Assembly: GCA_012033055.1 (NCBI GenBank)
Contig: JAAUPR010000007.1
Location: 7,861 to 42,492 of the forward strand
Direction of reading: 5' to 3'
Source: Limnothrix sp. RL_2_0
Lineage (GTDB): Bacteria > Cyanobacteriota > Cyanobacteriia > Cyanobacteriales > MRBY01
Length of the DNA: 34,632 nucleotides
Each line of letters opens with the position of its first letter. The stretch's first letter is position 1. Both the position numbers and the translations under genes were made by a program. Below, one piece after another: positions 7,628-21,142 of this stretch. The notes below the pieces were generated by a model. The model did not search any database and was not told the DNA's origin. It saw only the letters and a list, made by a program, of their open reading frames with translations.

Positions 7628-7999
7628 CTAGGCGATCGCCTCAATCGTAACAATGCCATGTTGCGCCACCTCAATCTGTAACGCGTAACCCGCGAGTAGA
7701 CCCATACCAATTACCGGTTCCGTTTCAATACGATTTACCGGGATTTGACGATATTGATCATCCCAAATCACCCGCACTGCATAAATTTCAAAAACTGTTG
7801 TTCGCCCATCCCCCAAGGTCGCCTGTCCATTACCGATCCACGGTAAATGTAGTGACTTAATCAGTTGACTCGGCAAACTTAGAAACCCTGTGTATCCGGT
7901 GTCGATAACTGCATCAATAACCTGAGTTTGCTGAAAGTCATTTTCCAGCACAAGGCGTAATACAGCATCACCGTTAATATTGACTAGACCATGCATCAT
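7628..7999 (-). CDS. Clan AA (retropepsin-like) aspartic protease
   Basis: A 123-residue single-domain aspartic protease-like protein. The catalytic triplet is in AVIDTGYTGFLSLP (D33-T34-G35), and the second conserved part, EPVIGMGLLAGYALQI, matches the hydrophobic-hydrophobic-Gly strand of the fold. Such proteins are expected to dimerise to form one active site. It is encoded directly after a 91-residue protein, with a 4-nt ATGA overlap. The same two-gene arrangement is common in cyanobacteria and other bacteria, but I know of no proven function. No signal peptide or membrane segment is visible. It could act as one half of a toxin-antitoxin-like or regulatory pair; this is speculation. Confidence 0.75.
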   Translation of the reverse strand: MMHGLVNINGDAVLRLVLENDFQQTQVIDAVIDTGYTGFLSLPSQLIKSLHLPWIGNGQATLGDGRTTVFEIYAVRVIWDDQYRQIPVNRIETEPVIGMGLLAGYALQIEVAQHGIVTIEAIA

Positions 8000-8271
8000 G
8001 TAGATTTACTGAAACTCCGTGCACCCATGCGACAGATCACCGATTCACCAATGCGAATAATCCATGGTTGGGCATCCGGTTCTTGGTGAAATAATTGGGT
8101 CGTCGCAGAGAGAATATCATCAGCAATTTCAAAGACTTCCGTCTCTAAGTCAATGGCGACATATCTGCCGAGGTTGCCCCGCCCTATAGTTGGTTGGATC
8201 TGAGAGGCATAAATCTCTTCTCCTCGCTTAGCAAACTCTTCTGGTTCGTATAGGGGACGTCGCGTATACAT
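7996..8271 (-). CDS. Small protein paired with the clan AA protease
   Basis: A 91-residue acidic protein. Conserved-looking elements are RPLYEPEEFAKRGEEIYASQ near the N-terminus, YVAIDLETEVFEI in the middle and PWIIRIGESVICRMG near the C-terminus. From memory this matches a widespread small family found just upstream of clan AA proteases. Its stop overlaps the start of the protease gene (ATGA), so the two are translationally coupled. Function is unknown; it could be a substrate, inhibitor or antitoxin-like partner of the protease. The chosen start is the only reasonable ATG, at 8271. Confidence 0.65.
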   Translation of the reverse strand: MYTRRPLYEPEEFAKRGEEIYASQIQPTIGRGNLGRYVAIDLETEVFEIADDILSATTQLFHQEPDAQPWIIRIGESVICRMGARSFSKST

Positions 8272-8612: not shown

Positions 8613-9182
8613 ATGACAACCCAAACTCTCGTGAAGCCTTTAACACCAGCAGCCTATTTAGAACAAGAAGTTGCCTCGGAAACACGCAATGAATATCGCA
8701 ACGGAGAAATCATCCCCATGGCAAGAGGCACACCAAAGCACAATCAAATTAGTGGAAATTCATATATCGCCCTCAAGCTAGCTCTAAAAAAATAACCCTA
8801 TGCCGTGTTTCATGTAGATCAGCGGTTATGGATTCCGGCGCAGCAAATCTATACTTATCCCGATGTGATGGTGACAGCAAAGCTTTTAACATTGCAAGAA
8901 GGGCACAAAGATACGGTGATAAATCCTTGTTTAATTGCGGAAGTTTTATCAAAGTCCACAAAAAATTATGATCGCAGCGAAAAGTTTCTTTACTATCGTT
9001 CTATCGCCAGTTTCAAAGAATATTTACTCATCGAACAAGATCGAATTTATGTCGAGCATTTCTATCAAATAGATCCTAAAAAATAGAGTTTGACAGAATA
9101 TACAGAAATTGATGATGTGATTGCTTTAGAGTCAGTGGGAATTGAGCTATCTTTAGATGATATTTATGAAGACACAGAGTGA
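8613..9182 (+). pseudogene. Uma2-family (DUF820) endonuclease-like gene with two in-frame stops
   Basis: Three consecutive segments in one reading frame form a single Uma2-type protein of about 190 codons. Segment one begins MTTQTLVKPLTPAAYLEQEV, segment two has the core WIPAQQIYTYPDVMV and IAEVLSKSTKNYDRSEKF, and the last ends LSLDDIYEDTE. They are split only by TAA at 8793-8795 and TAG at 9084-9086. The core carries the PD-(D/E)xK-like features of the family (YPDVMV; LIAEVLS). Each stop follows Lys-Lys, and each is one C-to-T change from a Gln codon (CAA, CAG), so the gene was probably inactivated by two transitions. An intact family member follows at 9397. Sequence error seems unlikely for two such substitutions. 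Natural readthrough cannot be excluded but has no support. Confidence 0.75.
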
Positions 9183-9268: not shown

Positions 9269-9394
9269 ATGCAGATTCCCATAGAAAATTTCTTCACAGA
9301 GTGGCGGGAATATTTACCGAAAGTGGCAGAGGGCGATCGCCCTAAAAATAAACCTATCAACTACAATCAAAACAGAACGCAGATATTTAAGTGA
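9269..9394 (+). CDS. Doubtful 41-codon ORF upstream of the intact Uma2 gene
   Basis: This frame encodes about 41 residues starting MQIPIENFFTEWREYLPKVA and stops three bases before the ATG of the next gene. The first 25 residues look protein-like, but a HIP1 site makes up part of the frame and no family is recognisable. The close spacing to the Uma2 gene would fit a leader peptide or small partner. I see no Shine-Dalgarno. Treat as a weak candidate. Confidence 0.2.
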   Translation: MQIPIENFFTEWREYLPKVAEGDRPKNKPINYNQNRTQIFK

Positions 9395-9396
9395 TT

Positions 9397-9945
9397 ATGA
9401 CTCTGGCGACTTATAAATGGACGGTAAAAAATTACCATCAAGCCATTGATGCGGGTTTGTTTGCTGATGAATCGGTTGAATTATTACGTGGAAATTTAGT
9501 TGTTATAGCACCAGAGCGGGAACCCCATGCTTATTACACTCGCAGCATTAGTCATTATTTACAAAGCTTGTTAGGCGATCGCGCTTTAGTTAGTGAAGCT
9601 CATCCAATTATCTTGCCGAATAATTCTGAGCCAGAACCTGATGTGGCGATCGCCCAGCCTTTAGGACGAGAATATTTAAATCATCACCCTTACCCTGAAA
9701 ATATTTTTTGGCTGATCGAATGTTCTCAAGCCACCCTAACTAAAGATTTAACCGAAAAGAAAGACATCTATGCAGAAGCGGGCATTCAAGAATATTGGGT
9801 AATTGATTTACAAAATCATCAATTAATTGTTTTCAAAGACTTGCAAAATAATTTATATACAACAGAGCAAATGTTCACAAATGGAGTAATTTCTCCTGTT
9901 AGTTTTCCTGATTTGCAAATACCTGTAACCGAGCTTCTTCAGTAG
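9397..9945 (+). CDS. Uma2-family (DUF820) endonuclease-like protein
   Basis: An intact family member of about 182 residues from ATG 9397 (a GTG at 9391 would add two). The family pattern is clear: DAGLFADESVELLRGNLV near the N-terminus, then PEPDVAIAQP, FWLIECSQATLTKDLTEK and GIQEYWVIDLQNHQLIVF. The Asp of PEPDVA, the Glu of LIECS and the Lys of TEKK sit where PD-(D/E)xK nuclease residues are expected. These genes are multi-copy in many cyanobacteria and move between genomes; their biological role is not established. The broken relative directly upstream is clearly divergent, so the two are not a recent tandem duplication. Confidence 0.85.
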   Translation: MTLATYKWTVKNYHQAIDAGLFADESVELLRGNLVVIAPEREPHAYYTRSISHYLQSLLGDRALVSEAHPIILPNNSEPEPDVAIAQPLGREYLNHHPYPENIFWLIECSQATLTKDLTEKKDIYAEAGIQEYWVIDLQNHQLIVFKDLQNNLYTTEQMFTNGVISPVSFPDLQIPVTELLQ

Positions 9946-9990
9946 GGGCGATCGCCCCCATCTTTCCCCACGAAATCTACAACTCTGTAG

Positions 9991-10062
9991 AATGTGTTAG
10001 CGAAGCGTAACGCATTGATCTTTCAATATCAAAAAGGCGCGTTACATTTCATTAACGCACCC
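9991..10062. repeat. Paired imperfect palindromes of the cyanobacterial GCGTTA type
   Basis: Two adjacent imperfect palindromes. The first (9991-10016) pairs AATGTGTTAGCG with GCGTAACGCATT. The second (about 10037-10062) pairs GGCGCGTTA with TAACGCACC around CATTTCAT. The TAACGCA / TGCGTTA words match a class of short dispersed palindromic repeats common between genes in cyanobacteria. There is no T-run, so a terminator role is unlikely. It lies between two convergent genes (Uma2, plus; HEPN-like, minus). Confidence 0.55.
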
Positions 10063-10106
10063 TATAAGATTGGTGCTCTACTTTGAATAGTCCAGATATA
10101 TTGTTT

Positions 10107-10844
10107 TTAATCGCCTGTTACGTTCGCGATCTGATGGACTTCGATCTTACTTAACTCTTCAGCATATGGATGATAGTATTCGTTTGCAATTTGAACAAAC
10201 AACGTAAATAAATTCGGAACTTCACTTCTTAGGCGTTCTGGAAAATCTGTCGTATGGTGACCCGATGTAGGATCGTCAGCATGAATAAATTCATTTCTGA
10301 TTCTTGCAGCTTCTTTCAATAGCTCATCTAAATCTTGAAAGCCAAACTTTTTAAGGTCTTCTTTCCACTTGCTTTGTGTGACAAATGGATAGCATTTGCC
10401 TTGTTTAGCCGAAACACTAGGAAATTGCTTTAACAGAAAATAAGCATATTCTTTTGAGTGAGGAGAAGGACAAAGTTGGACTCGAATTAGTTTCCATAAA
10501 CAATGATCTAAAAGAAGCTCAAACAGAGATCTAAATAAGATGACCATCATGGGTTTCCAGTCAGATATCGGTTTTTCTTTGACTCTAGGATTTCCTGATG
10601 TCCACATTTCTAAAATATTTTCTTCAAAATATTCTTCTAAAACTTTTGAAGGTTTTTGTTGATAATAATCTTCTAATAAAATCACATACTCGTAAGCAGA
10701 TTCTGGAAAATGAGCAACGGTTTCATCAGAAACTACTCCATAACCTGGACATTTTTGCCCCGCGAGATTGCGGTCTACATAACCGCAGTATAGGCACTCC
10801 TGATAATATGGAATGATAGATAGTAAAGCTTGGTTTGACTGCAT
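10107..10844 (-). CDS. HEPN-like protein with N-terminal Cys cluster, unknown function
   Basis: A 245-residue soluble protein. The N-terminus has a zinc-ribbon-like start, C17-x2-C20 then C32-P, but the position expected for a fourth Cys (C-P-x-C) carries Tyr35, so the site may be incomplete. Residues 95-245 look all-helical and contain RIRNEFIHAD, with R183-x4-H188, the pattern of HEPN domains in toxin and RNase proteins, preceded by a Leu/Glu-rich helix (DLDELLKEAA). HEPN proteins are often ribonucleases, but the motif also occurs by chance and in non-catalytic families. Base composition is AT-rich compared with alaS and suf. A ParD-type antitoxin fragment lies 19 bp upstream on the same strand. 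ATG 10844 is the first start; no strong Shine-Dalgarno is seen. Family not firmly recognised. Confidence 0.6.
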   Translation of the reverse strand: MQSNQALLSIIPYYQECLYCGYVDRNLAGQKCPGYGVVSDETVAHFPESAYEYVILLEDYYQQKPSKVLEEYFEENILEMWTSGNPRVKEKPISDWKPMMVILFRSLFELLLDHCLWKLIRVQLCPSPHSKEYAYFLLKQFPSVSAKQGKCYPFVTQSKWKEDLKKFGFQDLDELLKEAARIRNEFIHADDPTSGHHTTDFPERLRSEVPNLFTLFVQIANEYYHPYAEELSKIEVHQIANVTGD

Positions 10845-10863
10845 ACCCTAAAATGCCCATTCT

Positions 10864-10968
10864 CTAAATATTATTCTTTTTTTGATTTAACTTCGCTGCA
10901 CTTGAACACTGTCCAGTTGCAACCTTATCCGCCACAGTCTGTTCTTGGGCTAATGTTAGCGTGATCAT
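10864..10968 (-). pseudogene. N-terminal fragment of a ParD/CopG-type antitoxin
   Basis: Beginning at ATG 10968, the frame reads MITLTLAQEQTVADKVATGQ, then a Cys-Ser-Ser-Ala-Ala run that drifts into Lys/Asn and stops at 34 codons. The first 27 residues resemble the start of ParD-like antitoxins (LTxxQExxVxxKxATGxYxSAxEV), where a full protein would be about 70-90 residues. The strong ribosome-binding site GAGGTGAT (10973-10980) four bases before the ATG supports a formerly real start. No ParE toxin frame follows; the next gene is the HEPN-like one. The family call is from pattern memory. Confidence 0.5.
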
Positions 10969-11043
10969 GCAAATCACCTCAATTGATAGAACCTTTAGAC
11001 TAGAATTATCGTCTTTCTCCCCGAAGCCGAGCGCCCCATGTTT

Positions 11044-11073
11044 CCCCATCAAGTTCATGGAATGCCAAAATAG
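11044..11073 (+). repeat. Upstream block, copy 1 (before the DUF29 gene)
   Basis: This block of about 30 bp contains AAGTTC-ATGGAATGCCAAAATAGA and resembles the block at 11584-11613 before alaS (AAGTTCTACGGAATGTCACAATAGA), with one indel and a few substitutions. Each copy lies 33-45 bp before a start codon, which fits shared promoter or leader elements, with AAAATA/ACAATA as possible -10 regions. No clear -35 is visible. Confidence 0.4.
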
Positions 11074-11106
11074 AGGGGCAACCATATTGAGTCGCGACAT
11101 CTAATC

Positions 11107-11556
11107 ATGGAATCATCCCTACTGTACGAACAAGACATTTTGCTCTGGGTTGAAGATACTGTAGCCAAACTTAAGGCAAGGGATTTTGAAAATATAGATA
11201 TTGAGAATTTAATTGAAGAGGTAGAATCCTTGGGGATTTCGCAGAAGAAAGAATTAATCAGTCGGTTAATTGTGATTCTTGAGCATTTACTCAAACGGCT
11301 TTATGTTGATTCGTCTTATGATTTTCATGGTTGGGAGAGAACTGTCCGTACTCAACGCAATAATTTACAAGTTTTGATTGATCAAGTGCCGAGTCTCAAA
11401 CGATTATGGGATACAAGTTTTGATAAAGCGTGGAATATTGCCCTTAAAACTGTTTGTGAAGACTATCCTAATGTTGATTTTCCGACGGAATGGAGTTATT
11501 CACGAGAAATAGAAGCAATGCTTAACGAGAGATTTTGGCTAAATTCTGAAGGGTAA
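11107..11556 (+). CDS. DUF29 family protein
   Basis: A 149-residue protein of the DUF29 family, which is abundant and multi-copy in cyanobacteria and of unknown function. The family features are visible: LYEQDILLWVEDTVAKLKAR at the N-terminus, DIENLIEEVESLG, the helical LISRLIVILEHLLKRLY, and a Trp-containing core GWERTVRTQRNNL. Length is typical. No signal peptide or membrane segment is evident. DUF29 genes are often found among mobile and toxin-antitoxin genes, as here. The ATG at 11107 fits the conserved N-terminus. It lies between two similar upstream blocks, so it may have been inserted in front of alaS. Confidence 0.85.
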   Translation: MESSLLYEQDILLWVEDTVAKLKARDFENIDIENLIEEVESLGISQKKELISRLIVILEHLLKRLYVDSSYDFHGWERTVRTQRNNLQVLIDQVPSLKRLWDTSFDKAWNIALKTVCEDYPNVDFPTEWSYSREIEAMLNERFWLNSEG

Positions 11557-11655: not shown

Positions 11656-14289
11656 ATGTCTAGTGTGCCTCCTGTCCTCAGCGGAAGTGAAATCCGGTCA
11701 AAATTCCTCAACTTCTTCCACGAGCGGCAACACCCGATTCTGCCCAGCGCCTCCCTTGTGCCGGAAGATCCGACGGTGCTGTTAACCATTGCCGGAATGT
11801 TGCCCTTTAAGCCGATTTTCCTTGGACAGGAAGACCCCCCCGCCCCCCGTGCCACGACTTCCCAGAAATGTATTCGCACCAATGACATTGAGAATGTGGG
11901 ACGCACTGCCCGCCACCATACCTTTTTCGAGATGTTGGGGAATTTTAGTTTTGGGGACTATTTTAAAAAACAGGCGATCGCCTGGGCATGGGAGATATCG
12001 ACCGAGGTTTACAAACTTGACCCGAAAAATATTGTGGTCAGCGTGTTCCGCGAAGATGACGAAGCCTACAAAATTTGGCGCGACCAAGAAGGTGTGCCTG
12101 AATCTCGCATTATCCGGATGGGCGAAGAAGATAACTTTTGGAAATCGGGCGTAACGGGTCCTTGTGGCCCTTGCTCCGAGCTTTATTATGACTTCAAACC
12201 AGAGCTAGGCGATGAAAATATTGACCTTGAAGACGACAGCCGTTTTATCGAGTATTACAATCTCGTTTTCATGCAATACAACCGCGATGCAGAAGGCAAT
12301 TTAACGCCCCTCGCAAAGCAAAATATTGATACTGGCATGGGTCTGGAACGGATGGCACAAATCCTCCAGCGTGTACCGAATAATTACGAAACAGATCTAA
12401 TTTTTCCAATTATTGAAACAGCGGCAAAATTAGCAGGCATCGACTACAAAACGGCTGACGAAAAAACAAAAGTTTCCTTAAAAGTTATCGGTGATCATGT
12501 GCGTTCTGTTGTGCAAATGATTGCAGATGGCATCACGGCTTCCAACACGGATCGCGGCTATATTTTGCGTCGTTTAATTCGTCGGGTGGTGCGCCACGGC
12601 AAACTGATCGGCATCGAAAGTAACTTTATTCTTGCAGTCGCAGAAACAGCCATTCAAATGTTGGAAGAACCTTATCCCAATACTCGCGAGCGGGAGAGTT
12701 TTATTAAGCAAGAATTAGAGCGGGAAGAAAACAATTTCCTCAAAACTTTAGAGCGCGGCGAAAAACTGCTGGCTGAGATTATTGAGAAGGAAGAAAAACA
12801 AATTTCTGGTGTTGATGCCTTTACGCTTTTTGACACCTTTGGTTTCCCCTTTGAACTGACCCAAGAAATCGCAGAGGAACAAGGTTTAACTGTTGATGAA
12901 ACGGGTTATTATGAGGAGATGAAAAAGCAGCAAGAACGCTCTAAAGCTGCCCACGAAACCATTGATTTAACTGTCCAAGGAAGTTTAGATGAACTAGCCG
13001 AACGTATTCACCCAACCAAATTTGTTGGCTATACAAATCTGCAATCCCAAGTTCAAATTGAAGCGGTTTTAGTGGGGGGGCATCCAGTTGAACAGGCTGA
13101 AGTTGGTAGCGAAGTGCAACTCATTTGTAATAGCACGCCGTTCTATGCTGAGTCCGGTGGACAGATCGGCGATCGCGGTTATTTTTTGGGCGATAATCTC
13201 GTCGTTCGCATCGAAGATGTCAAAAAAGAATCCGGCTTTTTCGTCCATTACGGCAAAATTGAGCGGGGCACTTTAAACATTGGCGATACGGTAAATGCCA
13301 CTATTGATCGTGCTTGCCGCCGTCGTGCTCAAGCGAATCATACGGCAACTCACCTATTACAAGCGGCTTTAAAAAATATCGTTGATGACTCTATCGCTCA
13401 GGCGGGTTCTTTGGTAGATTTTGACCGCTTGCGATTCGACTTTAACTGTCCTCGTGCAATTACCGCCGACGAACTCGTACAAATCGAAGATCAGATTAAC
13501 GCATGGATTGCTGAAGCCCACGACACCCAAGTTGAAACCATGGCGATCGCCGATGCAAAGGCAAAAGGTGCAGTGGCAATGTTCGGTGAAAAGTACGGCG
13601 AAGAAGTGCGGGTGGTGGATGTCCCCGGCGTATCAATGGAGCTTTGTGGCGGAACCCATGTAAACAACACGGCTGAAATTGGTTTGTTTAAAATTGTTTC
13701 TGAAACCGGAATTTCCTCTGGTATCCGACGCATTGAGGCGATCGCCGGAGCATCAGTATTAGATTATTTGAAAGTCCGCGATCAAGTGGTCAAAGAATTG
13801 GGTGATAAATTCAAAGCCAAACCCGAAGAAATCACCGAGCGGGTCGAGAATATCCAAGCCGAATTGCGCGGTGTCCAAAAAGAGTTAGAAAAGGTAAAAG
13901 CAGAACTGGCGATCGCCAAATCAGAAGCCCTAATCAGCCAAGCCGAAACCGTCGGAGAATTCAAAATCCTCGTGGAAAATATGGGCGCCCTCGATGCCAA
14001 AGCCCTCCAAACCGCAGCAGAACGTTTACAACAAAAACTCGGTAATGCCGCCGTGGTTTTAGCCTCTATCCCAGAAGAAGGAAAAGTTTCCCTTGTCGCC
14101 GCTTTTGGGGAAGAAATTTATAAAGGCAAAAAACTCCAAGCCGGAAAATTTATCGGGGCGATCGCCAAGCTCTGTGGCGGTGGTGGCGGTGGTCGTCCGA
14201 ACCTAGCCCAAGCCGGGGGACGGGATGCCAGCAAACTACCAGAAGCCTTAGCACAAGCAAAAACACAGCTCATTGAAACTTTAGGCTAA
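11656..14289 (+). CDS. alaS: Alanyl-tRNA synthetase
   Basis: Charges tRNA-Ala with alanine in the cytoplasm and edits mischarged Ser and Gly. The 877-residue length is normal. The class II catalytic core is at the N-terminus (GSEIRSKFLNFF; then RATTSQKCIRTNDIENVG, the motif 2 region). The editing-domain zinc site is complete: H562-x3-H566 in NHTATHLL and C664-x3-H668 in CGGTHV. The C-terminal C-Ala part has a coiled coil (about 720-760) and the glycine-rich KLCGGGGGGRPNLAQAGG. ATG 11656 fits the family N-terminus. A strong terminator follows the stop, so alaS is probably monocistronic. Confidence 0.97.
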   Translation: MSSVPPVLSGSEIRSKFLNFFHERQHPILPSASLVPEDPTVLLTIAGMLPFKPIFLGQEDPPAPRATTSQKCIRTNDIENVGRTARHHTFFEMLGNFSFGDYFKKQAIAWAWEISTEVYKLDPKNIVVSVFREDDEAYKIWRDQEGVPESRIIRMGEEDNFWKSGVTGPCGPCSELYYDFKPELGDENIDLEDDSRFIEYYNLVFMQYNRDAEGNLTPLAKQNIDTGMGLERMAQILQRVPNNYETDLIFPIIETAAKLAGIDYKTADEKTKVSLKVIGDHVRSVVQMIADGITASNTDRGYILRRLIRRVVRHGKLIGIESNFILAVAETAIQMLEEPYPNTRERESFIKQELEREENNFLKTLERGEKLLAEIIEKEEKQISGVDAFTLFDTFGFPFELTQEIAEEQGLTVDETGYYEEMKKQQERSKAAHETIDLTVQGSLDELAERIHPTKFVGYTNLQSQVQIEAVLVGGHPVEQAEVGSEVQLICNSTPFYAESGGQIGDRGYFLGDNLVVRIEDVKKESGFFVHYGKIERGTLNIGDTVNATIDRACRRRAQANHTATHLLQAALKNIVDDSIAQAGSLVDFDRLRFDFNCPRAITADELVQIEDQINAWIAEAHDTQVETMAIADAKAKGAVAMFGEKYGEEVRVVDVPGVSMELCGGTHVNNTAEIGLFKIVSETGISSGIRRIEAIAGASVLDYLKVRDQVVKELGDKFKAKPEEITERVENIQAELRGVQKELEKVKAELAIAKSEALISQAETVGEFKILVENMGALDAKALQTAAERLQQKLGNAAVVLASIPEEGKVSLVAAFGEEIYKGKKLQAGKFIGAIAKLCGGGGGGRPNLAQAGGRDASKLPEALAQAKTQLIETLG

Positions 14290-18861: not shown

Positions 18862-19506
18862 CTACTTATTGACCTGAATAATATAGCCACATTGATGTTC
18901 ACCCTCATTGATCCACTGGGTGCGTTCCACAGTACAGTCCGGTAAAATCGCCTCAAACATTTCCAACTCATTGCCACACACCACCGGAAAAGACTCCGCC
19001 ACCTCGGCGATCGCACAATGATGCTCCATCAATAAAAACCCTTCTTTGCCATGCGGATCAGCGGGAGCCACTTCTGCCATATAGCCCTCTTCCTTCCGCA
19101 AATTTACTAGCTGCGTCAGTCGCTCTAATAATGAACCCTGACCGAGGCGATCGCGATAATTTTCCGCCTTTTTCTGCCACTGCTTACGTAAAATCTCTTC
19201 CACCTGATCCTGACCCGCCGTTTCCACCATCGCATCCAAAAACGACACAGCAAAATCACTATAGCGATTAGGGAACTTGTTGCGACCCGCCTTACTCAGC
19301 CCATAAAAATAATTAGGACGACCCATACCCTCCTGCTGGGCACGATGAGCAATCAAGCCCTCCGACTCCAAATCCTTTAAATGGCGGCGCACAGCCTGAG
19401 GACTAATTTGTAAAGATTCCGCGAGTTGAATCGCCTTCGCTTGACCATGCTTTAGTAAATAATCCAGAATGTCTTGCTTGGTCGAACGAGTTTCAGAAAT
19501 AGTCAT
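18862..19506 (-). CDS. sufR: SufR, Fe-S-sensing repressor of the suf operon
   Basis: A DeoR/ArsR-like winged-helix repressor that, loaded with an Fe-S cluster, represses sufBCDS and itself. The helix-turn-helix is at residues 20-50 (AIQLAESLQISPQAVRRHLK), followed by a wing (GMGRPNYFYGL). The cluster ligands are C164, C177, C191 and C206, giving C-x12-C-x13-C-x14-C. The 214-residue length is normal. It is divergent from sufB, with a perfect SufR-type operator in the 196-bp gap between them. The ATG at 19506 gives the usual N-terminus. Confidence 0.95.
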   Translation of the reverse strand: MTISETRSTKQDILDYLLKHGQAKAIQLAESLQISPQAVRRHLKDLESEGLIAHRAQQEGMGRPNYFYGLSKAGRNKFPNRYSDFAVSFLDAMVETAGQDQVEEILRKQWQKKAENYRDRLGQGSLLERLTQLVNLRKEEGYMAEVAPADPHGKEGFLLMEHHCAIAEVAESFPVVCGNELEMFEAILPDCTVERTQWINEGEHQCGYIIQVNK

Positions 19507-19543
19507 GGATCAGCGGTCAGCAAAATAGACTGCAAATGATTGA

Positions 19544-19557
19544 CAACTTTTTTGTTG
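19544..19557. promoter_or_regulatory. SufR operator, perfect copy
   Basis: CAAC-TTTTTT-GTTG is an exact match to the reported SufR recognition pattern CAAC-N6-GTTG, flanked by A and T to give ACAAC/GTTGT. TTGACA at 19540-19545 overlaps its left arm and could be the sufB -35, with TACCTT (19564-19569) as a weak -10 at 18 bp. Binding here would block the promoter. Confidence 0.85.
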
Positions 19558-19583
19558 TTAAAGTACCTTAGAATAGACTAAAG

Positions 19584-19597
19584 CAATAAAGTTGTTG
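19584..19597. promoter_or_regulatory. Probable second SufR site, one mismatch
   Basis: CAAT-AAAGTT-GTTG differs from CAAC-N6-GTTG at one base. It begins exactly 40 bp after the first site, about four DNA turns, so both would face the same side of the helix. It lies downstream of the presumed -10 and before sufB. Confidence 0.5.
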
Positions 19598-19702
19598 TTT
19601 TAATCAATCATAATCGCGTTTACCGATTTGGACAACGCATCCGTTGCAAAAACGCAGCGAAAAATCTGAAGCTTACCCATCCTACAGAGACACACTCCAG
19701 CA

Positions 19703-21142
19703 ATGAGCGCGACTGTCAAAACCCTTGTTAACCAGCCATACAAATACGGTTTCGTCACAGATATCGAGACGGACAGTATTCCCCGTGGACTCAGCGAAGA
19801 TGTTGTCCGCCTGATTTCTGCCAAGAAAAACGAACCAGAGTTCATGCTGGAGTTTCGCCTCAAAGCCTACCGCCATTGGCTAAAAATGACCGAACCGGAA
19901 TGGGCGCACGTTAATTATCCGGCGATCGATTACCAAAATATCGTTTACTATTCCGCTCCCACCAAAGAAACCAAAAAAGTAGAGAGCCTCGACGACATTG
20001 ATCCCGCGCTCCTCGAAACCTTTGAAAAATTAGGCATTCCCCTCTCAGAACAAAAGCGCCTGTCTAACGTTGCCGTAGATGCAATTTTTGATAGTGTTTC
20101 CATCGCCACTACGTTTAAAAAAGACTTGGCAAAGCATGGCGTAATTTTCTGCTCCATCTCCGAAGCCCTGCAAGATCATCCCGAACTCATTCAGAAATAT
20201 TTAGGCACAGTTGTACCCACCGCTGACAACTTTTTCGCGGCATTAAATGCGGCAGTATTTAGTGATGGTTCCTTTGTTTTTATTCCAAAAGGCGTTAAAT
20301 GCCCCATGGAATTGTCCACCTACTTCCGCATTAACAACGGTGACACCGGACAATTTGAGCGCACTTTGATCGTTGCCGAAGAAGGCGCATCCGTGAGCTA
20401 CCTCGAAGGCTGTACAGCACCAATGTTCGATACCAATCAACTCCACGCCGCCGTTGTGGAACTCGTAGCCCTTGACAATGCAGACATCAAATATTCAACT
20501 GTGCAAAACTGGTTTGCTGGTGACGAGAATGGCAAAGGCGGCATTTACAACTTTGTAACTAAGCGTGGTTTATGCAAAGGTGTTAATTCCAAAATTTCTT
20601 GGACTCAAGTAGAAACAGGCTCTGCCATTACTTGGAAATATCCCAGTTGTGTGTTGCTTGGAGATAATTCTGTTGGCGAATTTTATTCTATTGCGCTGAC
20701 TAACAATATGCAGCAGGCTGACACGGGTACAAAGATGATTCACATCGGCAAAAATACCCGCAGTACCATTATTTCTAAAGGTATTTCCGCTGGGAAATCA
20801 AAGAATAGTTACCGTGGCTTGGTAAAAATGAATCCGAAAGCTGATGGTGCAAGAAATTATTCTCAGTGTGATTCGATGTTGCTGGGGGATACGGCTGAGG
20901 CGAATACTTTTCCTTATATTCAAGTGGACAATCAAAATGCCAAGGTGGAGCATGAAGCTTCTACGGCAAAAATTGGGGAAGAACAGCTTTTTTACTTTGC
21001 CCAGCGGGGTATTTCTGAAGAGGATGCGATTTCGATGCTTGTGAGTGGTTTCTGCAAAGATGTCCTGAGTGAGCTGCCCATGGAATTTGCTGCTGAAGCG
21101 GATAAGCTGTTGAGTCTGAAGCTAGAAGGCGCAGTGGGTTAA
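19703..21142 (+). CDS. sufB: SufB, Fe-S scaffold subunit
   Basis: The scaffold core of the SufBCD complex, on which nascent [4Fe-4S] clusters are built in the cytoplasm. It has 479 residues, typical for cyanobacteria and plastids. Visible features are [20 protein letters not shown] at the start, the SufB core [20 protein letters not shown], and the C-terminal segment [20 protein letters not shown] with [17 protein letters not shown] 19703 follows a 145-bp gap after the first operator. It is followed by sufC after 62 bp of AT-rich sequence, a gap with AAATATTTAATATTT that could mark a processing site. Confidence 0.96.

What the first reader, a model, noticed from the sequence alone, without database searches (positions are those of the whole stretch)
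10107..10844. HEPN-like protein with an incomplete zinc-ribbon start
R183-x4-H188 sits at the end of a Leu/Glu-rich helix, as in HEPN ribonucleases, while the N-terminus keeps three of four expected Cys. The gene sits in a patch of mobile and defence-type genes. A new HEPN effector would fit, but no partner gene is evident.
Basis: inference. Interest (0 to 1): 0.5.

Follow-up and report, generated by a model that had tools for sequence, protein, structure and literature searches.

The report
Orphan zinc-knuckle protein, possibly HEPN
A real cyanobacterial gene with no relatives that I could find sits in a frequently swapped slot beside alaS, and its far end weakly resembles HEPN RNA-cutting toxins, so it is a plausible but unproven new member of a known kind.

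Summary
Window 10844-10107 (-) encodes 245 residues with C17-x2-C20-x11-C32-P-x-Y35 and R183-N-E-F-I-H188. The frame looks coding (0 of 1000 random frames score as high).

HEPN is plausible, not proven. The only Pfam hit and the only PADLOC hit of the whole protein are HEPN models over the motif, both weak (E 0.022, below Pfam's cut-off; E 0.019). On a 105-aa piece both vanish when the motif is masked, and motif-keeping shuffles do not recreate them (0 of 9, 0 of 3). But controls also gave chance hits to other families at E 0.007-0.04, and 8% of shuffles contain such a motif. Structure models were too poor to show a fold.

No homologue was found, so conservation of R183 and H188 is untestable here.

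New context: the stretch upstream of alaS differs among six genomes of the genus; one carries a Pfam-recognised MNT-HepT (HEPN) pair there.

Most likely: a solo, lineage-restricted HEPN-like RNase effector with an eroded zinc knuckle. Zinc ribbon-HEPN fusions are already described.

The parts
10107..10844 (-). target gene, 245 aa orphan; degenerate zinc knuckle plus HEPN-like C-terminal region
10740..10796 (-). zinc knuckle C17-x2-C20-x11-C32-P-x-Y35 (fourth ligand position is Tyr; His45 at 10710-10712 is a possible substitute)
   Evidence: weak Pfam RUBY_RBDX match, E 0.038, over residues 16-33 of the first 50
10149..10568 (-). proposed HEPN-like helical region, residues about 93-232
   Evidence: inference from helices in low-confidence models and Pfam/PADLOC matches within residues 157-209
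10281..10298 (-). R183-N-E-F-I-H188, candidate RNase catalytic motif
   Evidence: both profile hits are lost from a 105-aa piece when it is masked
9951..10070 (.). dispersed intergenic repeat just downstream of the gene; holds a terminator-like hairpin (10063-10034, - strand)
   Evidence: 9 matches in the own genome including itself, 40 of 210 candidates scored; copies upstream of alaS in G005 and G003; hairpin (2 such sites found, 0.8 expected)
9391..9945 (+). Uma2 gene, left flank of the variable slot; 83-84% identical (protein) to Uma2 upstream of alaS in G003, G004 and G005
11107..11556 (+). DUF29 gene; a deleted remnant lies upstream of alaS in G005
11656..14289 (+). alaS, right flank of the variable slot

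Best explanation
A lineage-restricted accessory gene for a solo HEPN-like effector. An N-terminal rubredoxin-type zinc knuckle, with one ligand position lost, would bind a partner, RNA or trigger. The C-terminal helical domain would dimerise and cut RNA without metal, through R183 and H188, as a growth-arresting or abortive-infection toxin. Shown: the frame looks coding, the motif and knuckle residues are present, the HEPN profile signal depends on both motif and context, and the locus is a variable slot that holds a Pfam-recognised HEPN toxin pair in one relative. Inferred: the HEPN fold, the catalysis, the role in defence, and the function of the knuckle.
For: The single Pfam hit of the whole protein is HEPN_Apea (E 0.022; 0.0091 for the last 155 aa, 0.004 for the last 105 aa). 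The single PADLOC hit is CARF_HEPN_CSX20 (E 0.019; 0.0084 and 0.0037 for the same pieces). On the 105-aa piece, masking the motif removes both, and motif-keeping shuffles match no HEPN model (0 of 9 in Pfam, 0 of 3 in PADLOC). Of ten other frames that carry nearly the same motif, none matches a HEPN family at E 0.02 or better. N follows the catalytic R, which PMC3710099 section 6 calls typical. The low-confidence models agree on the helix order: a long helix ending near 123, helices 130-140 and 157-166, a helix 172-187 that ends at the motif, then helices within 201-232. The slot upstream of alaS holds an MNT gene plus a HepT-like RNase gene (Pfam E 7.4e-30) in G005.
Against: Profile scores are below Pfam's curated cut-off (15.6-18.0 against 24.4 bits). 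Chance hits of similar strength to unrelated families appear in my own controls: GREB1_C at E 0.038 in 1 of 9 shuffles, OGFr_N at E 0.007 and DUF2749 at E 0.044 among ten motif-bearing frames, one of which also matched HEPN_RiboL-PSP at E 0.15. The target's own pieces also gave DUF7515 (E 0.13) and DUF269 (E 0.15), and PHROGs gave a different weak hit, phrog_34202 of unknown function, E 0.038, residues 203-244; NCBIfam gave none. The whole-genome HEPN_Apea scan found sub-threshold matches in 8 other genomes of 40, one stronger than the target's (E 0.0032, with a stop inside), the rest about equal. Structure models are poor (mean pLDDT 48 and 55) and fold searches showed no HEPN structure that I recognised. 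No homologue was found, so nothing shows that R183 and H188 are under selection. No antitoxin or partner was seen.
Confidence: 0.38

Rival explanations
1. A helical protein of another, undescribed family with a rubredoxin-like zinc knuckle. The R-x4-H string at the end of an amphipathic helix is coincidence, and the protein is not a HEPN RNase.
For: An R-[NDH]-x3-5-H string occurs in 8% of shuffles. Nearly the same nine-residue string turned up in frames that look unrelated to HEPN, including four BadF/BcrA-type proteins (Pfam was run on one of them, E 6.5e-07, just under that family's cut-off). Profile hits are weak, and controls give unrelated chance hits at E 0.007-0.04. Fold searches found nothing meaningful.
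Against: Two separate libraries each return only a HEPN model for the full-length protein, and motif-keeping shuffles match none (0 of 9, 0 of 3).
Confidence: 0.4
2. A decaying accessory gene. The zinc knuckle has already lost a ligand and the protein no longer works, as with the broken Uma2 gene nearby.
For: Tyr35 stands at the fourth ligand position. A Uma2 frame at 8613-9182 has two in-frame stops before its end. In G005 the DUF29 gene survives only as its two ends. The five other genomes of the genus have no match to the target at E 1e-5.
Against: The 245-codon frame is intact and still has coding-like codon and amino-acid use; R183 and H188 are both kept.
Confidence: 0.15
3. A HEPN-fold protein that binds RNA or a partner without cutting, with the knuckle as the main functional part.
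For: Some HEPN domains are thought to be non-catalytic (PMC3710099 abstract and section 6).
Against: The R-N-x3-H motif is present, whereas that paper ties loss of activity to loss of the motif.
Confidence: 0.07

Closest known systems
Zinc ribbon-HEPN fusion Npun_R5629 (Nostoc punctiforme, species read from the locus tag), listed in Table 1 of PMC3710099 in the Swt1-like block
   Same: Same two parts, zinc ribbon and HEPN, in a cyanobacterium.
   Different: I did not obtain its sequence, and the table does not state the domain order; the target's zinc site is one ligand short, and the target found no match in the cyanobacterial genomes searched.
ApeA-like HEPN (Pfam PF18739)
   Same: Best Pfam match, over the motif helix (profile positions 69-108 of 136).
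   Different: Below cut-off. PMC3710099 describes a mostly beta N-terminal domain of about 300 aa fused to ApeA HEPN (passage); the target has only about 90 residues before its helical region.
HepT-MntA toxin-antitoxin pair
   Same: HEPN RNase with R-x4-H; a pair of this kind lies upstream of alaS in relative G005.
   Different: No MNT gene beside the target, and no detectable sequence similarity to that HepT.
CARF-HEPN Csx20 (PADLOC PDLC01843)
   Same: Only PADLOC match, at profile positions 321-373 of 498.
   Different: The rest of that model, including the CARF part, was not matched.
DUF4145 HEPN proteins with zinc ribbons (PF13643)
   Same: Some members combine HEPN with a zinc ribbon (PMC3710099 Table 1).
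   Different: The target gave no match to this family, although the scan drops most matches above E 0.1.

Membership tests
HEPN superfamily | R-x4-6-H motif, usually with N, D or H after the R | tested here: met
   R183-N184-E-F-I-H188; but such a string occurs in 8% of shuffles
HEPN superfamily | four-helix bundle with the motif on the third helix | tested here: inconclusive
   helix order fits, but the models are low confidence (pLDDT 48 and 55; pTM 0.45 each) and the fold searches gave only weak matches
HEPN superfamily | second acidic residue in E-x3-[KR] (many families) | tested here: inconclusive
   E162-DLK-K166 and E229-ELS-K233 exist, but so short a pattern means little
HEPN superfamily | R and H conserved among homologues | not testable with these tools
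   no homologue found
HEPN superfamily | metal-independent RNase activity | not testable with these tools
   needs the bench
ApeA-like HEPN (PF18739) | score over the curated cut-off of 24.4 bits | tested here: not met
   15.6 bits full length, at most 18.0 for a piece
ApeA-like HEPN (PF18739) | beta-rich N-terminal domain of about 300 aa (described as fused to ApeA HEPN; whether every member has it I do not know) | tested here: not met
   the whole target is 245 aa
HepT-MntA toxin-antitoxin | adjacent MNT nucleotidyltransferase gene | tested here: not met
   the neighbours are Uma2 and DUF29
rubredoxin-like zinc ribbon | two C-x2-C knuckles, four ligands (recalled) | tested here: not met
   C17, C20, C32 and Tyr35; a C-C-C-H site with His45 remains possible

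The most novel reading that the evidence does not exclude
A new, lineage-restricted HEPN RNase family in which a three-cysteine (or C-C-C-H) knuckle acts as a one-protein sensor that holds the RNase off without an antitoxin, carried as cargo in an alaS-flanking slot where the genus exchanges HEPN and other conflict genes.
Probability: 0.14. Interest if true: 0.55.

Novelty: new member of a known kind. Interest (0 to 1): 0.3.

Why it matters
If the HEPN reading is right, this is a solo RNase effector with no relatives found here, an example of how far HEPN toxins diverge, and the alaS-flanking slot would be a place to look for further conflict genes in this genus. If it is wrong, it is one more orphan gene in a variable slot.

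Tried and rejected
Homologue search. Whole protein: 1 of 60 relatives at E 1e-5 (itself); 1 of 386 genomes of the phylum at E 1e-3 (itself); 3 of 330 of the order at E 0.02 (itself, G332 and G1304; the G332 match at C3 is the one inspected as L026, the others were not inspected); 1 of 11 genomes reached through loci at E 0.1 (its match holds a stop codon, not inspected); 2 of 395 genomes of the phylum of G421 (reached from a record titled as a Proteobacteria MAG) and 2 of 345 of the phylum of G418 (Portibacter lacus) at E 0.01. The draws overlap in part. I read the alignments of those last four matches: two contain stop codons, one covers only residues before position 96, and one lies in a gene that I take, from recall, for dehydroquinate synthase (L082); its stretch reads IKNEIV and lacks both the Arg and the His. 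The C-terminal 155 aa gave 28 of 386 genomes at E 0.2. Of the 31 rows besides the target itself I looked at two (L026, L028), which read as unrelated by eye; the other 29 were not inspected. tblastn found none in phages or plasmids at E 0.1. Peptide-pattern scans gave no confirmed relative: genome contigs 14 stretches; viral contigs 2, 14, 3 and 11 stretches. The best match by sequence to a solved structure had E 0.53. NCBIfam gave none. PHROGs gave one weak hit of unknown function, E 0.038, residues 203-244, not followed up.

Motif scan. A DNA pattern for I-R-N-[DE]-F-[IV]-H-[AG]-[DN] gave 19 genome loci and a related pattern 2 viral loci. In 14 of the 19 an open frame holds the amino-acid motif. 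The best of these against the target was a 37-residue frame in L064 (E 0.0007 in that set of 14 preselected frames, alignment over residues 167-194); I took it for chance because the frame is so short. The rest matched little beyond the motif. In the two viral loci the motif lay in frames that look unrelated. I gave 10 of the 14 frames to Pfam, one of them cut to its first 260 residues. Two of those ten (L065, L071) look to me like genuine HEPN C-termini, from recall, yet matched no HEPN family, so Pfam's silence is weak evidence.

Structure. Two single-sequence AlphaFold2 jobs (pLDDT 48 and 55) and their fold searches gave no meaningful match, and I recognised no HEPN chain in the lists. The VIA lists cover only 73 and 20 chains preselected by Foldseek.

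Partner gene. The upstream same-strand ORF 10864-11100 scored marginally as coding (12 of 1000). The DNA 10845-11106 matched, besides itself, only by its last 79 bases in 1 of 33 other genomes (G005), just before the DUF29 start. I do not call it a gene.

Idea dropped: that the G004 cargo (469 aa, with R-T-N-S-T-H) is also HEPN. No Pfam or PADLOC family matched it.

Literature.. Two listed works on CoCoNuT restriction systems hold the words HEPN domain and zinc ribbon; I did not read them. One search found no paper with three of its four terms.

Full report
What is there. The minus strand of 10107-10844 encodes 245 residues with an ATG start and a TAA stop. The window lies in a genome of 4.13 Mb in 200 contigs. 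Palindromes of the form GGCGATCGCC and the gene content point to a cyanobacterium; that assignment rests on recall.

Is it a gene? Most likely yes. Compared with 1000 random frames of the same base composition, none reaches its codon score or its amino-acid score, trained on 13 other long ORFs of the window. It is AT-rich (36.3% G+C against 45.9% for the window), like its neighbours Uma2 (37.8%) and DUF29 (36.7%), which fits acquired accessory genes.

Is it HEPN? There is a signal, but it is thin. Pfam gives one family for the whole protein, HEPN_Apea at E 0.022 and 15.6 bits (cut-off 24.4), over residues 161-201. The last 155 and 105 residues give E 0.0091 and 0.004, next to other weak hits (DUF7515 E 0.13, DUF269 E 0.15). 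PADLOC gives one family, CARF_HEPN_CSX20 at E 0.019, over residues 157-209, and 0.0084 and 0.0037 for the pieces. As controls on the 105-aa piece I masked the six motif residues, and both HEPN hits vanished. I also shuffled the rest while keeping residues 180-190, and no HEPN hit appeared (0 of 9 in Pfam; 0 of the first 3 of those shuffles in PADLOC). Of ten other frames that carry nearly the same motif, none matched a HEPN family at E 0.02 or better, though one 59-aa chance frame matched HEPN_RiboL-PSP at E 0.15. So the signal is more than the motif.

Against it: the score is below the curated threshold, and the controls show that Pfam hits of this strength come by chance. One shuffle matched GREB1_C at E 0.038, and two motif-bearing frames matched OGFr_N at E 0.007 and DUF2749 at E 0.044. 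PHROGs gave a different weak hit of unknown function (E 0.038, residues 203-244), NCBIfam none. The whole-genome HEPN_Apea scan gave matches in 11 of 40 genomes at E 0.1, two of them over the cut-off; of the other nine one was the target (E 0.045), one was stronger but held a stop (E 0.0032), and seven were about as weak (E 0.03-0.09).

Structure. Two single-sequence AlphaFold2 models, the whole protein and residues 87-240, have mean pLDDT 48 and 55. Both show helices in an order that suits HEPN: a long helix ending near 123, helices 130-140 and 157-166, a helix 172-187 that ends at the motif, and helices within 201-232. Foldseek and VIA-align gave no meaningful match. This neither supports nor excludes HEPN.

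The N-terminus. C-x2-C-G-Y...K-C-P-G-Y-G resembles the start of a rubredoxin-type zinc ribbon; Pfam RUBY_RBDX matches residues 16-33 weakly (E 0.038). A C-x2-C-x8-25-C-P string occurs in only 0.2% of shuffles, so the knuckle is unlikely to be chance. Tyr35 breaks the usual four-ligand set; His45 could substitute, which is untested.

No relatives. No homologue was found in relatives, in samples of three phyla, in phages, plasmids, GTDB contigs or IMG/VR (counts and uninspected rows in Tried and rejected).

The locus. I compared 9-10 kb that hold the alaS start and its upstream side in the five other genomes of the genus by BLAST, and read ORF lists for about 2.7 to 7.3 kb of each. No two of the six arrangements are the same. 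The window has Uma2 - repeat - target - DUF29 - alaS. G004 has Uma2 (83% identical) - a 469-aa gene with no family match - alaS. G005 has Uma2, a small ORF and a PIN-domain gene, the repeat, a long helicase-like gene (named from recall), the two ends of a deleted DUF29, then an MNT gene and a HepT-like RNase gene (Pfam E 1.4e-16 and 7.4e-30), the repeat, a DUF3825 gene and alaS. G003 has DUF29, a protease-like gene, Uma2 (84%), an MNT gene without a HepT beside it, the repeat, a 235-aa gene, another repeat copy and alaS. G002 has DUF29, the protease-like gene and alaS. G001 has transporter-like genes, a cyanase-like gene and one further frame before alaS (names for the protease, transporter and cyanase are from recall; Pfam names). 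So the target sits in a slot of gene exchange, and in 1 of 5 relatives that slot holds a Pfam-recognised HEPN toxin with its antitoxin. This supports an accessory, conflict-type role by position only.

The repeat at 9951-10070 has 9 matches in the genome including itself (40 of 210 candidates scored) and recurs upstream of alaS in G005 and G003. It may have helped recombination; that is inference.

Mechanism proposed. By analogy with studied HEPN RNases, His188 would activate the RNA 2'-OH and Arg183 would steady the intermediate or hold the backbone, in a metal-free cut that leaves 2',3'-cyclic phosphate ends (PMC3710099, section 6 read). The knuckle would bind a trigger, RNA or partner. All of this is inferred for the target.

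Known kinds. PMC3710099 (abstract, section 5 part 1 of 2, section 6 and found passages seen) lists zinc ribbon-HEPN fusions, among them Npun_R5629, and zinc ribbons fused to DUF4145. In one search that paper was the only one holding any of the four searched names. HEPN/MNT pairs work through modification of HepT by the adenylyltransferase MntA (PMC7641770, start of the abstract in a listing only). The target is therefore at best a new, very divergent member of a known kind. It fails tested features of ApeA and of HepT-MntA, so I file it under neither.

Verdict. Observation confirmed; interpretation plausible and partly supported; function unproven. Interest 0.3.

Noticed in passing
window 8613-9182 (+): A second Uma2 gene is broken by two in-frame stops; its middle part is listed as an ORF (8805-9086, Pfam Uma2 E 8.5e-16)..
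   Followed up: partly
L088:7022-7432 (G003): An MNT gene stands directly against the dispersed repeat with no HepT gene beside it, while in G005 a similar MNT gene is followed by HepT and then the repeat; it looks like a toxin-less remnant..
   Followed up: partly
L086:7331-8740 (G004): A 469-aa gene between Uma2 and alaS matches no Pfam family at E 0.1 and no PADLOC family at E 1, and holds R-T-N-S-T-H in its C-terminal part; an unknown cargo in the same slot..
   Followed up: partly
L085:7284-7498 (G005): DUF29 survives only as its first 27 codons and its stop region, so the gene lost its middle..
   Followed up: yes
window 7628-8271 (-): Two overlapping small genes, the downstream one like a retropepsin-type aspartic protease (from recall); no Pfam match to either at E 0.01..
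   Followed up: no
window 18862-21142: A winged-helix regulator divergent from sufB, presumably SufR (named from recall)..
   Followed up: no
L072, L073, L074, L075: Four Bacteroidetes proteins of BadF/BcrA type carry Q-I-R-N-E-F-[IV]-H-G-N, showing that the HEPN-like string alone is not diagnostic; Pfam was run on one of the four (L074, E 6.5e-07, just under the cut-off)..
   Followed up: partly
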